A stretch of 64,000 nucleotides of DNA from the NCBI GenBank assembly GCA_022606135.1, contig JABYQN010000010.1, positions 1,922,001 through 1,986,000 of the forward strand, given 5' to 3'. The DNA comes from Fomes fomentarius (Eukaryota; Basidiomycota; Agaricomycetes; Polyporales; Polyporaceae). The translations under genes and the position numbers were made by a program. The notes beneath the pieces were generated by a model, which ran no database searches, was not told the origin of the DNA, and saw only the letters and a program-made list of their open reading frames with translations. Positions 40,504-48,624 of the stretch are shown here, piece after piece (positions within the stretch are counted from its first letter, which is position 1; each line of letters starts with the position of its first letter).

Positions 40504-42086
40504 ATGGATATACTCGACTGCGACCCTGATCTCAGCCAGGAGATCGTCCTGGTGCTGTATAATAAGTTACAGCAGAGACGACACGAACTAGAGGAACTTC
40601 GTCAGCAAAAGGTGTGCATACTGGACATTCCTTCCACAGGTCAGCGTGCTCCGGCCCAATCTGATCATGTCATTGGCGTGGTCAGACCGCTTCGGAAGCA
40701 GTACTCGTGGATAGTACGACGATTCAACGCGAAAACGAAAACCTCAGGGCCGAGCTCTTGAAGCTTCAGCTTCAATTTACGGTAAGTGACTCGGATGAAG
40801 ACATGAAGCCTGCCATTGTTACGCCATCTAAAGAGGTATAACGGTGTGCTGAATCAATGCAGACTGACTGTTCTGACCCGTTTTGAGCCTCATAGGACTA
40901 TTCAAACGGATTAGATGCGCAAGCTGCTGTAGCTGACATGATGCACGAACATCGACAAGAGGAAGATGCCCATGTAAGTCAGTTGTGACATGTGGCCGTT
41001 GGTGTCTCACTCGTAATTCGTCAATTCAGGCGGAAGTTCTACGGATCATGCAGGAAAGACTAGCAAGTTACAAATCAAAGTACAACGCCCTGAGAGCCGA
41101 GAATACGGAATCGTCAAAAGTAGGTGATCGCAGCACTTGAAGCGGGCTTCATATTGATTGATCCCGGGTAAAGACTCTTGCAGATATGCTCACACAGCTA
41201 CAGAGCAAGACCGAGGATCTGGCGGAATACAAAGAATCTGTGTCTACTATAAAGTCGAACATTGTACGTCTCGTGAGGGTTCTGCCAGCAATCACGATGT
41301 TCGTATCCGCTGAGTATTTGCAGGAAGCGACTCGAAAGCAGCGAAAAGAGCCATTTGACATACGTGTCTTTGCTTCGGGGACAAGAGTGAATGCAAAAGT
41401 CAAGTTCCCAAGGATGAATACACTCAAGACATTCTGTTCTTCGACGCCTTTCTCAGGCCTTCCCTCAGTATGTATCCCCAAGTATACTGTTACTTTGACA
41501 ATCCTCAGTGAAGTTATATCACACTAGGTCCTGTTGAAGAAATTGTATGTTTTCGATATATTCGCTTACAGAGTATCGGTTCAATTATAGCACCAGCGGC
41601 ACCCTGCGGCTACTCGTACTTCGCCCCACGGAGGTCATATGGTTCAAGTCGTCGAGTATCGAGCGGGGGATTCATCTCCACCCTTCCTATACTTATGACC
41701 CTACCTCTCATGGAGGGTATGGTGGCTGGGAAGAATATTCGATGACTCGCGAAGCAAAGGAGGATGATGATCAAGAACGGGAAGTCATCTGCAGACGGAA
41801 GAACGATTGGTACTACTATGGCACCTACAAGTGCACTTACAGCGACTCTGTTGCTACGGACGAGTTGGAGGCAATCCCTGACGGATCTCAGGTATTGCCT
41901 TCATATGTTATGGTGTCCGCAATTGGATGACTTACATTGGCAACAGATGTCTAAGACGGAACCATTGGAAGTATTGCGTAAGGATCGGCTTGCCCCTGTT
42001 GTCCTCACCTTTCTACGGGAGTTGCATCGAACTGGCCCGATGAGTCTTCAAGGGGTGGCACTGGAGCGCATAGGCTTCAATCAGTG
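40504..42086 (+). pseudogene. DUF6697-like gene A, 5' part, interrupted by LINE
   Basis: Upstream part of a gene whose coding sequence is broken at 42086 by a retrotransposon. The first exon is 40504-40611; later exons include pieces ending at 40781 and covering about 40896-40975, 41030-41118, 41177-41263 and 41324-41467, with the C-terminal domain from 41595. The N-terminal half is a coiled coil (VLYNKLQQRRHELEELRQQK, RENENLRAELLKLQLQF, VLRIMQERLASYKSKYNALR). The C-terminal domain has KNDWYYYGTYKCTYSDSV and ERIGFNQ, the pattern I associate with DUF6697. Read-through into the element adds about 20 unrelated residues, starting with Phe from the T run, and stops at 42150. The remaining 47 codons are at 48622-48763. 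Function unknown. Confidence 0.78.
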
Positions 42087-42089
42087 TTT
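42078..42089. repeat. Target-site duplication, left copy
   Basis: CAATCAGTG (42078-42086), followed by TTT that cannot be told from the poly(A/T) tail. Identical to 48613-48624 on the other side of the element. Confidence 0.92.
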
Positions 42090-42100
42090 TTTTTTTTTTT
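42087..42100 (-). repeat. Poly(A) tail of the LINE (14 T on plus strand)
   Basis: An uninterrupted T14 run directly follows the left target-site copy. This marks the 3' end of the retrotransposed RNA. The first three T may belong to the duplication. Confidence 0.93.
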
Positions 42101-42844
42101 GGAATCCTTGTTTATTGCCCTGGAGGGCCGGGCCCTATGGTAGGCAATGACACCACATATCGACAAACTGCGTGCACTAGGCGTAGAGGGGGGTTCTCGA
42201 AACGTAGGTAGGGGAGTGGAGAGGGAGACCGCGGCGTGTGCGGGAGCCATTAGCTTGGTAAAAAGTAAGGTACGGTATGGTAGGAGAGCGAGACCGAGAG
42301 ACAGAGACAGAGAGAGACAGTATGTACAGTAAATGAAAAAACCGAATCTAGTACGCCGTGCATATGCGCGCTCGGTGTGAGGGGCAGTCGTCGATGGTAG
42401 ACGTGGATGTGGTGGGGTCGCTGACAGGACGGGGACCTTTTAAACTCACGGGTTCAAGTCGGGACACCGCAGCGACGGGCTACGCGTGGGCACCCCGCCG
42501 CCTTCGCGCGGGCCGTCCTACCCCCCAAGTGGGCCGTGCAGGCCATGCGACCGCTGCCAAGGGGTATGTGTGTGGGGGAAGGGGAAAGCGCGGCCGGCTT
42601 AGCATTGGCAGCCGCTTGAGGCGGGAGGTCTTGGGCGCATGGCGCAAGCGTGCACTGGCGCGGCTTCGGCGAGCGCGTGGCGCGCCGCATCGGATGGCCA
42701 CCCGGCATGGAGCATCGGGGGAGGAGGGGGCTGGCATTGGACGTTGTGCCGCCATCGGGAGCGTCCGCTCGTCGTGTCATGCATGCCTAGAGGGGGAGAG
42801 GGTCAGCCAAGTCATGCCTGGGGAGCGGACGGGTGAATGTAGAT
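42101..42844 (-). other. LINE 3' UTR
   Basis: GC-rich non-coding tail between the ORF2 stop and the poly(A). Several long open frames appear on either strand but have no domain signal. A short AGAGAC-rich stretch lies at about 42285-42320. Confidence 0.8.
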
Positions 42845-46768: not shown

Positions 46769-48450
46769 GGACGGCGCGCGTCAGCGGGCGATCGAACATG
46801 CATAAAACCGTCGAGCCGGGTCTGTGTCGGGCCCGGTTGCTGCGTGTCGACCTCGGTGAAGCGGTGGCGGACCTGTGACCATACCGTGGGTGGGGGAGGC
46901 GCATGGAGCAAGTCGTCCTCCTCGGTGACCCAGGTCTCCGGGTTGTTCGTCACGAAGAACCTAAAGCCACTGTCAGCGCGACGGGCGACATGAGCTCGCA
47001 CCTTTGAACGCAGTGTTGGACAGTTGCGGTCCCACGCCGCGTGGCCAGAGACGTCACATCCCGCGCAACGATAGTCGGACGGGTCCCTCACAGCACATCG
47101 CGCTGTTGGGTGGTCCCCCGCGCACGTAGCGCAAACGTCATGCTCCATCGGGCAGTCCCTGGCGAAGTGGCCGTCGTAACTCTGACACTTGGCGCAGCGC
47201 TTGGGCTCTATAAGCTCGCGACGGACGAGAGCGCGCCGCCCCATGATCGTGAGGCCCTTGAGCGCGCGGTTCGCCTGTTCGATGCCAGAGACGGTGAGTA
47301 GCAGGAACGCTGTGCGCTGCCCAGGATGACGCTTCTCCGGGGGTTTGATCCACTCCGCCCGGCTGAGTGATTCCTTCTCCATGCCGTTCGCCTCCTCCAG
47401 CCCCCGGAGGCCCGCCGCACTGTGGGGCTCGAAGCCGACCGGGACACCTTCGACCACGAGCTTGTATAGACGTTCCACGATACGGGCCTCCATGCCCATT
47501 TTTCGAGAGAAGGCGACGGACACGTGCTGGCGCACGATCCAACGCGCGACGGCGACGTTCGAGAAAGTGAAAACGACGTCGCCGTGGGACTGTACCTTGG
47601 CCGTCTCGATTGTGCTGCCCGCCGGCGGCGTAAGCCCATCTTTTGCCATGAGATCCAGGGCCTGCCGTGCCCGCTCCAGGGCCTCCCGGTCGGAGAGGGT
47701 GTTTCCTTGCGGATCCTTGAGGGCTGCCCCGCGTACGAGGAGCTGGCGCTGTAATAGGTCTGCCAAGTTGACCGCCCTGCGCGTGCGCACAGGAGCGGCC
47801 TCGAGGGTCAGTGGGGATGGCGCCGTATGCGACGCACCTGGAGTTTGCGCTGCCTGCCCCGCCATCTGCAGCTCCTTGTGCAGTCCTAACACCTTATCCT
47901 CCGCCTGTTCCACCCGCATGCACGCCGCCTCCAGACGTTCCACCCACTGGTCCGCCTCCTTCCTAACCTCGTCCAGCGCGTTCGTGGCCTCCTCCAACTT
48001 CTCTTCCATCTGCGTCGTCTGGTGGTCGAGCCTGTTCTGAATTTGCGTTTCGACCCGTTCTGCAACTATGGGCGCTATGGAGTCCTGTAGCCGTCGGGAG
48101 AGAACCGCCTTGGTGATGTGCGCGAACGCAATCAGGCCCTTCCGGGCGAGGTCCTGGGCCGGCGAGGCGAAAGCAAAATGAAGCAGGCCCGTCGTGAGCG
48201 CCGCCGGTGAGACCGAGTCCTCGCCCGGCGGGATGAGCTGGCGCTGCCGTAGGAACGCGACCGCCGCGTCGAGGTCCGGGATGATCTTCTCGGCGTCCTC
48301 AAAGAGAGTCTTCTGCGTTGTGGGAGGTTTCTTCGCTTGCCTCGACGTTGCAGCCGACCTGCTCGCCGCTGAGCTGGCACTGGCGCCTAAAGAAGCCGCC
48401 GCCGTGCTTCTTTTTCCCTGGCCTGTCAATGACGTCTGACTGTCGGCCAT
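46765..48450 (-). CDS. LINE ORF1: gag-like RNA-binding protein with three zinc knuckles
   Basis: A 561-residue nucleocapsid-like protein expected to coat the element RNA. A Ser/Ala-rich N-terminus is followed by a coiled coil at about 140-195 (MEEKLEEATNALDEVRKEAD) and a folded region with HGDVVFTFSNVAVARWIVRQ, similar in style to ORF1 RNA-binding modules. Three C-terminal zinc knuckles: Cys 419, Cys 422, His 428, Cys 433; Cys 440, Cys 443, His 447, Cys 452; Cys 462, Cys 465, His 470, Cys 477. Its TGA shares bases with the ORF2 ATG, so ORF2 translation could come by termination-reinitiation. No internal break. Confidence 0.93.
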   Translation of the reverse strand: MADSQTSLTGQGKRSTAAASLGASASSAASRSAATSRQAKKPPTTQKTLFEDAEKIIPDLDAAVAFLRQRQLIPPGEDSVSPAALTTGLLHFAFASPAQDLARKGLIAFAHITKAVLSRRLQDSIAPIVAERVETQIQNRLDHQTTQMEEKLEEATNALDEVRKEADQWVERLEAACMRVEQAEDKVLGLHKELQMAGQAAQTPGASHTAPSPLTLEAAPVRTRRAVNLADLLQRQLLVRGAALKDPQGNTLSDREALERARQALDLMAKDGLTPPAGSTIETAKVQSHGDVVFTFSNVAVARWIVRQHVSVAFSRKMGMEARIVERLYKLVVEGVPVGFEPHSAAGLRGLEEANGMEKESLSRAEWIKPPEKRHPGQRTAFLLLTVSGIEQANRALKGLTIMGRRALVRRELIEPKRCAKCQSYDGHFARDCPMEHDVCATCAGDHPTARCAVRDPSDYRCAGCDVSGHAAWDRNCPTLRSKVRAHVARRADSGFRFFVTNNPETWVTEEDDLLHAPPPPTVWSQVRHRFTEVDTQQPGPTQTRLDGFMHVRSPADARRP

Positions 48451-48612
48451 GGTGGAAAGACCCCTCCAGGGACTTTATGTAAGTGAATATGTCGTTCAGG
48501 GCACCGTGAGTACCGGCCAGAAGGGAGTTACCGCACGCTGAACTCTCCCCTAGTAGAGTTTTTTAGCGTGGGAAAATACCTGCTGGTGGTGGTAGTAGGT
48601 CAAGAGGGGTCC
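48451..48612 (-). promoter_or_regulatory. LINE 5' UTR and probable internal promoter
   Basis: 162 nt from the target-site copy to the ORF1 start. Contains CCACCACCAGCAGG (minus strand) near the 5' end. LINEs of this type carry their promoter here; no specific box can be named. Confidence 0.6.
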
Positions 48613-48624
48613 CAATCAGTGTTT
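48613..48624. repeat. Target-site duplication, right copy
   Basis: CAATCAGTGTTT, matching the left copy. Host coding sequence continues directly from it. Confidence 0.92.

What the first reader, a model, noticed from the sequence alone, without database searches (positions are those of the whole stretch)
42078..48624. Intact full-length LINE inserted into the coding sequence of a host gene, with perfect target-site duplication
Both ends are defined to the base: T14 tail plus CAATCAGTG on the left, the same nonamer (12 nt with TTT) on the right. ORF1 and ORF2 are open throughout, and the host frame resumes exactly after the duplication. No decay is visible, so the insertion is probably young and the copy may still be mobile. 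Such a clean case lets the empty allele, the insertion site choice and the effect on the gene all be tested.
Basis: partly seen in the sequence, partly recalled or inferred. Interest (0 to 1): 0.92.

Follow-up and report, generated by a model that had tools for sequence, protein, structure and literature searches.

The report
Young intact LINE in fungal gene
A recently inserted, apparently intact copy-and-paste jumping gene sits inside the last exon of a fungal gene, flanked by a perfect 12-base duplication of its landing site; this is a well-preserved but ordinary kind of event, although the element's copying enzyme carries an unusual active-site motif shared by its close relatives.

Summary
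A 6,512-bp LINE on the minus strand (42101-48612, plus A14) lies between two copies of CAATCAGTGTTT. ORF1 and ORF2 (endonuclease, reverse transcriptase, RNase H) are open. The host genome (40.9 Mb; probably a Polyporales fungus) has four copies, the other three 99.8-99.9% identical to this one, at unrelated sites, each with its own exact 12-13-nt duplication. In two of the four, this one included, both frames are open; this copy has two private substitutions. The insertion splits the last coding exon of a DUF6697-like gene; three related genes keep the frame across the equivalent point, though the matches are weak. The element is a new member of a known kind (fungal Tad-like LINEs; clade not tested) and most likely got there by target-primed reverse transcription. 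Polymorphism, expression and mobility could not be tested here.

The parts
42078..42089 (.). left copy of the target-site duplication (last three T shared with the tail)
   Evidence: sequence
42087..42100 (-). poly(A) tail, A14 on the sense strand
   Evidence: sequence
42101..48612 (-). body of the LINE
   Evidence: same ends in three other copies
42101..42844 (-). 3' UTR
42115..42147 (-). predicted 3'-terminal two-tier hairpin, followed by AATAAA and GGATTCC
   Evidence: folding energy itself not exceptional
42845..46768 (-). ORF2, 1307 aa: endonuclease, reverse transcriptase, RNase H, C-terminal CCHC
44672..44683 (-). RT motif C, codons for S-M-D-D (ORF2 aa 696-699)
46765..46768 (-). ATGA: ORF2 start overlapping ORF1 stop
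46765..48450 (-). ORF1, 561 aa, three zinc-knuckle-like motifs read by eye
48451..48612 (-). 5' UTR (162 nt)
48613..48624 (.). right copy of the target-site duplication
   Evidence: sequence
40504..48763 (+). gene A (DUF6697-like), interrupted in its last exon (41947-42077 | 48613-48763)
   Evidence: exon structure inferred, one middle exon unresolved

Best explanation
A recent insertion of a full-length LINE by target-primed reverse transcription. The ORF2 endonuclease nicked the gene-A coding strand after 5'-CAATCAGTGTTT; the exposed TTT paired with the poly(A) tail of the element RNA and primed first-strand synthesis; second-strand cleavage about 12 nt away and repair left the 12-nt duplication. 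The element lies antisense to gene A and replaces the gene's conserved C-terminal end (LYDGLL... to the stop) by about 16 foreign codons. Shown: structure, duplication, sibling copies, frame across the empty site. Inferred: nick site, strand order, effect on gene A, present mobility. Most likely the ORF2 protein is made by termination-reinitiation at ATGA and recognises the 3'-terminal tail of the RNA (both inferred from conservation).
For: Exact 12-nt duplication and A14. Four near-identical copies with four different exact 12-13-nt duplications; of 9 full-length copies with both ends examined, 8 have an exact repeat of 11-14 nt and the ninth (L015) a 12-nt repeat with one mismatch. Of 20 further loci fetched for 3'-end matches, 17 hold only 92-597 bp from the 3' side, as 5'-truncated LINEs do. 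EN, RT, RNase H domains. Catalytic positions agree with the majority of 102 aligned relatives apart from the motif-C serine. Reading frame of gene A continues in three paralogues.
Against: No empty allele, transcript or transposition was observed. Two of the four young copies have a broken frame (one in ORF1, one in ORF2). Gene A could already have been non-functional: sub-threshold family match, no protein relative at E <= 1, unresolved middle exon.
Confidence: 0.95

Rival explanations
1. The LINE is real and recent, but gene A was already a decaying or dispensable gene, so the insertion had no consequence.
For: Match below the DUF6697 cut-off, no relatives in the protein search, several DUF6697 loci in the genome that could be redundant (18 other matches, pieces of genes counted apart).
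Against: The empty-site exon is open to its stop and keeps the motif seen in three paralogues; six upstream exons could be joined with GT/AG borders and an open frame.
Confidence: 0.35
2. The copies are recent but the family is now immobile (silenced by CpG methylation or otherwise), so the copy is intact without being active.
For: In the related five-copy subfamily 201 of 272 private changes are C-to-T at CpG although CpG makes up about 17% of positions, a mark of methylation-linked decay.
Against: This copy and its siblings show almost no such decay.
Confidence: 0.3
3. Assembly artefact or gene conversion between copies rather than recent transposition.
For: Near-identity of copies could arise by conversion.
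Against: Four unrelated flanks with four different exact duplications directly at the element ends.
Confidence: 0.02

Closest known systems
LINE-Tad-like RtPc5 / PbNLR1 of Paracoccidioides (Tad clade, CgT family), PMC4427930 (passages read)
   Same: ORF1 572 aa and ORF2 1312 aa with endonuclease, RT and RNase H, poly(A) tail; here 561-569 and 1307 aa, same domain order
   Different: No sequence comparison could be made; here ORF1 and ORF2 overlap by ATGA and motif C is SMDD
Unnamed LINE proteins of Trametes cinnabarina, Trametes sanguinea and Ganoderma
   Same: 66-71% (T. cinnabarina rows P0006-P0009) and 54% (G. sinense P0013) ORF2 identity; same SMDD motif
   Different: Distinct families; an unnamed NCBI-sourced protein (P0003) is closer at 88%
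Tad1 and Inkcap LINEs mobile in the mushroom Marasmius oreades, PMC9674265 (passages read)
   Same: Recent LINE insertions, 5'-variable length, in an agaricomycete
   Different: There transposition was seen directly; here it is inferred from sequence
SART1 of silkworm (via review PMC5972666, passages read)
   Same: ORF1/ORF2 stop-start overlap used for translational coupling
   Different: SART1 uses UAAUG; here ATGA, and coupling is not tested
Stringent-type LINEs such as ZfL2-1/ZfL2-2, PMC4176376 (abstract and introduction read)
   Same: Conserved 3'-tail stem-loop; that paper says LINE/SINE pairs sharing a tail were reported in the Tad1 clade too
   Different: No binding or retrotransposition assay here, and a poly(A) tail follows the hairpin

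Membership tests
non-LTR retrotransposon (LINE) | APE-type endonuclease and reverse transcriptase in one ORF | tested here: met
   RVT_1 1.2e-18, Exo_endo_phos_2 1.1e-7, Exo_endo_phos 1.7e-5, all over cut-off; PDB matches LINE-1 ORF2p and R2
non-LTR retrotransposon (LINE) | poly(A) or other 3' tail, target-site duplication, no terminal repeats | tested here: met
   A14 and exact duplications in four young copies; element ends unlike each other
non-LTR retrotransposon (LINE) | 5'-truncated copies in the genome | tested here: met
   17 of 20 fetched loci hold only a 3' part
non-LTR retrotransposon (LINE) | aromatic (F/Y)xDD in RT motif C (recalled as typical, and found in 92 of 94 non-SMDD relatives covering the motif) | tested here: not met
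   S-M-D-D, both aspartates kept. A typical rather than a defining residue, so it does not exclude membership
Tad clade | placement by RT phylogeny with Tad reference elements | not testable with these tools
   no named Tad reference sequence was available; the tree holds only proteins
Tad clade | two ORFs, ORF2 with endonuclease, RT and RNase H, poly(A) | tested here: met
   against the description in PMC4427930; not exclusive to the Tad clade
stringent-type LINE | conserved 3'-tail stem-loop | tested here: inconclusive
   60-nt tail 93-95% alike between subfamilies, hairpin folds in three variants and in a far family, but energy near that of shuffles for the window element (z -0.32 and -0.84) and no pair-by-pair covariation count was run
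stringent-type LINE | retrotransposition depends on the tail | not testable with these tools
   needs an assay
DUF6697 (gene A) | score over the Pfam gathering cut-off | tested here: not met
   23.7 against 23.9 bits; 21.6. Hence called DUF6697-like

The most novel reading that the evidence does not exclude
An evidently recently mobile lineage of fungal LINEs uses a reverse transcriptase in which the aromatic residue of the (F/Y)xDD catalytic motif has been replaced by serine (SMDD), together with lineage-fixed changes beside catalytic motif A (S609, A613 in place of mostly G and N/S). The enzyme works with a rebuilt nucleotide- or primer-binding pocket, so copying fidelity, nucleotide choice or template jumping may differ from other LINEs.
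Probability: 0.5. Interest if true: 0.55.

Novelty: new member of a known kind. Interest (0 to 1): 0.35.

Why it matters
The locus is a clean, dated example of LINE mutagenesis in a basidiomycete: one PCR across CAATCAGTGTTT tells whether strains still carry the empty allele, and four sister copies with exact duplications give the landing preference of the endonuclease. If the SMDD enzyme is active, it is a natural experiment on a residue that is aromatic in 92 of the 94 non-SMDD relatives covering the motif, maintained over divergence down to about 52% protein identity.

Tried and rejected
SINEs: four loci sharing only the last 60 bp (L043-L046) looked like SINE partners, but align over 188-593 bp to the L059/L060 subfamily and are 5'-truncated LINEs. 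Rfam: no match at gathering score in 40000-50000. Gene A relatives: protein search of 773 candidates, none at E <= 1; the query held a guessed residue at the unresolved exon junction, which may have cost a little sensitivity. DUF6697 in print: no paper in the held library. SMDD with reverse transcriptase in print: 2 versions of one unrelated paper (listing only). Tad with 3' UTR, stem-loop and fungal non-LTR terms: one plant review (listing only). Absence claims rest on these searches of the open-licence library alone. Hairpin covariation: MAFFT placed the stem of the distant family out of register, so no pair count was made; the compensatory look rests on one family, by eye. ORF1: no Pfam family over cut-off; zinc knuckles are read by eye (zf-CCHC_2 E 0.46). 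Sequence hmm/PDB alignments to LINE-1 stopped at position 696, just at motif C, so the place of SMDD rests on the relatives' alignment and on the model's beta-hairpin.

Full report
The observation. The window holds, on its minus strand, a 6,512-bp element (42101-48612) with an A14 tail, between two copies of CAATCAGTGTTT at 42078-42089 and 48613-48624; three T of the left copy run into the tail. ORF1 starts at ATG 48450 (561 codons; 569 from the preceding stop) and ends at 46765; ORF2 is 46768-42845 (1307 codons). Neither has an internal stop. GC is about 0.61 in the windows filled by the element against 0.49-0.54 in the windows beside it.

Siblings in the genome. The window lies in a 40.9-Mb, 24-contig genome. 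Three other full-length copies are 99.94, 99.94 and 99.83% identical to the window copy (L009, L010, L011). Their flanks are unrelated, and each has its own exact duplication: 12, 12 and 13 nt. Among the four, the window copy has two private substitutions, one in ORF2 and one in the 3' UTR. ORF1 is frame-broken in the C3 copy and ORF2 in the C4 copy; the window and C5 copies have both frames open. They are not the only ones: an L059 copy of another subfamily also has both frames open (576 and 1308 aa). Of 9 full-length copies with both ends examined, 8 have an exact repeat of 11-14 nt, and L015 a 12-nt repeat with one mismatch, read from the printed flanks; in some (for example L009, L017) a few extra bases lie between the repeat and the 5' end. 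Of 20 more loci fetched for 3'-end matches, 17 hold only 92-597 bp from the 3' side. Together these are the marks of target-primed reverse transcription with frequent 5' truncation.

The host gene. Upstream lies a nucleoporin gene (Nucleoporin_N and Nucleoporin_C matches). Gene A follows: six exons with GT/AG borders can be joined in an open frame, one middle exon could not be resolved, and the last exon begins at 41947. Joined at one copy of the duplication, its frame runs to a stop at 48761-48763; with the insertion it reads through T14 into about 16 foreign codons and stops at 42150. The C-terminal part scores 23.7 bits for DUF6697 against a cut-off of 23.9, 21.6 in the genome scan. In 293 open stretches from 11 loci, rows from three genes matched the last exon (two E-values 1.1e-5 and 5.5e-5, one weak at 0.05), and all three run on across the insertion point (IGFN|LYRSLL, RFNNALYHVL, IGFDAAFYEEI). 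A fourth locus that matched in the genome search (C2:1133077, E 0.11) gave no row. A protein search found no relative of gene A at E <= 1. So insertion into coding sequence is well supported, loss of an important function is not shown.

Age and decay. In the five-copy subfamily L013-L017 I counted 272 changes private to one copy; 201 are C-to-T (on either strand) at CpG, although CpG positions are about 17% of the sequence. This is the pattern expected of methylation-linked deamination. Copies there carry 39-83 private changes each; the window copy carries two. No absolute date is given, as no rate was measured.

Tail. The last 60 bp before the poly(A) are 93-95% identical between the window element and the L059/L060 subfamily, whose coding parts are about 69% identical. 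The 21-nt core occurs at 66 places with up to 3 mismatches, 37 of them exact, against 8 for the reversed pattern. It folds as a two-tier hairpin followed by AATAAA, but the energy is not special for the window element (67 and 44 of 200 shuffles fold as well, on two lengths). A family at 40% ORF2 identity (C8:2122080) ends in a similar hairpin with other stem letters (9 of 200 shuffles as good). This suggests, without proving, recognition of the tail; stringent-type recognition is established for zebrafish L2 LINEs and said to be known in the Tad1 clade (PMC4176376, abstract and introduction). AATAAA may also be a polyadenylation signal.

ORF junction. ORF1 stops and ORF2 starts in ATGA in 9 of 9 junctions printed, across subfamilies with different neighbouring letters. 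Coupled termination-reinitiation at overlapping UAAUG or AUGA is described in PMC5972666 (passages).

Motif C. ORF2 residues 696-699 read SMDD. In an alignment of P0002 and the 120 listed relatives, 22 of 121 have SMDD, 94 others cover the motif (54 F, 38 Y, 1 C, and 1 S in a row reading STSP, probably misaligned) and 5 have gaps. In 13 of 14 own-genome copies tested the motif is present and is SMDD; L012 lacks the region. The C8 family in the same genome has FVDD. In a tree of 79 full-length proteins the 12 SMDD rows fall, with one row that has a gap at the motif (P0086), in one clade with support 100 (quick method). In the model the motif sits at the turn of a beta-hairpin (residues 297-302 and 305-312), as motif C does. 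Other near-fixed differences of these 22 rows are at 435, 609, 613, 697 and 719; 609 and 613 lie next to the motif A aspartate 606. The list behind these counts is the best 120 of 145 hits from 7,994 scored candidates, so the width of the lineage is not known.

Affiliation. Named relatives are from Trametes and Ganoderma; the host is therefore probably a Polyporales fungus (inference). Architecture equals that of Tad-clade RtPc5 (PMC4427930, passages). Active Tad1 and Inkcap LINEs in a mushroom are in print (PMC9674265, passages), and Tad and Deceiver elements in Laccaria (PMC3411680, passages). The clade was not tested by phylogeny with named references.

Verdict. The finding is real and the reading largely right. 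It is an ordinary event of a known kind, in unusually clean form; the serine in motif C is the part a specialist would not expect.

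Noticed in passing
44672-44683 (minus strand): RT motif C reads SMDD in place of (F/Y)xDD, shared by a clade of relatives from Trametes and Ganoderma.
   Followed up: partly
42101-42160 (minus strand): 3'-terminal tail nearly identical between subfamilies that are about 69% alike in coding sequence; predicted hairpin plus AATAAA.
   Followed up: partly
46765-46768 (minus strand): ATGA stop/start overlap of ORF1 and ORF2, conserved in 9 of 9 printed junctions.
   Followed up: partly
L013-L017: Older related copies decay mainly by C-to-T at CpG (201 of 272 private changes).
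   Followed up: partly
L010 (C3:911201-921100): The sibling copy there lies a short way upstream of an ATG-led frame that looks WD-repeat-like by eye; no family search was made.
   Followed up: no
35874-40222: Nucleoporin gene (Nup155-type by recall) directly upstream of gene A; Nucleoporin_N and Nucleoporin_C matches.
   Followed up: no
5686-6645: PNGase A domain protein (PNGaseA 6.9e-62).
   Followed up: no
G000 C10:934295-935611 and C10:957061-958377: Two ORF1-like matches with the same score (24% identity, one TGA each) in opposite orientation about 22 kb apart: possibly an inverted repeat or recent duplication of another LINE family.
   Followed up: no
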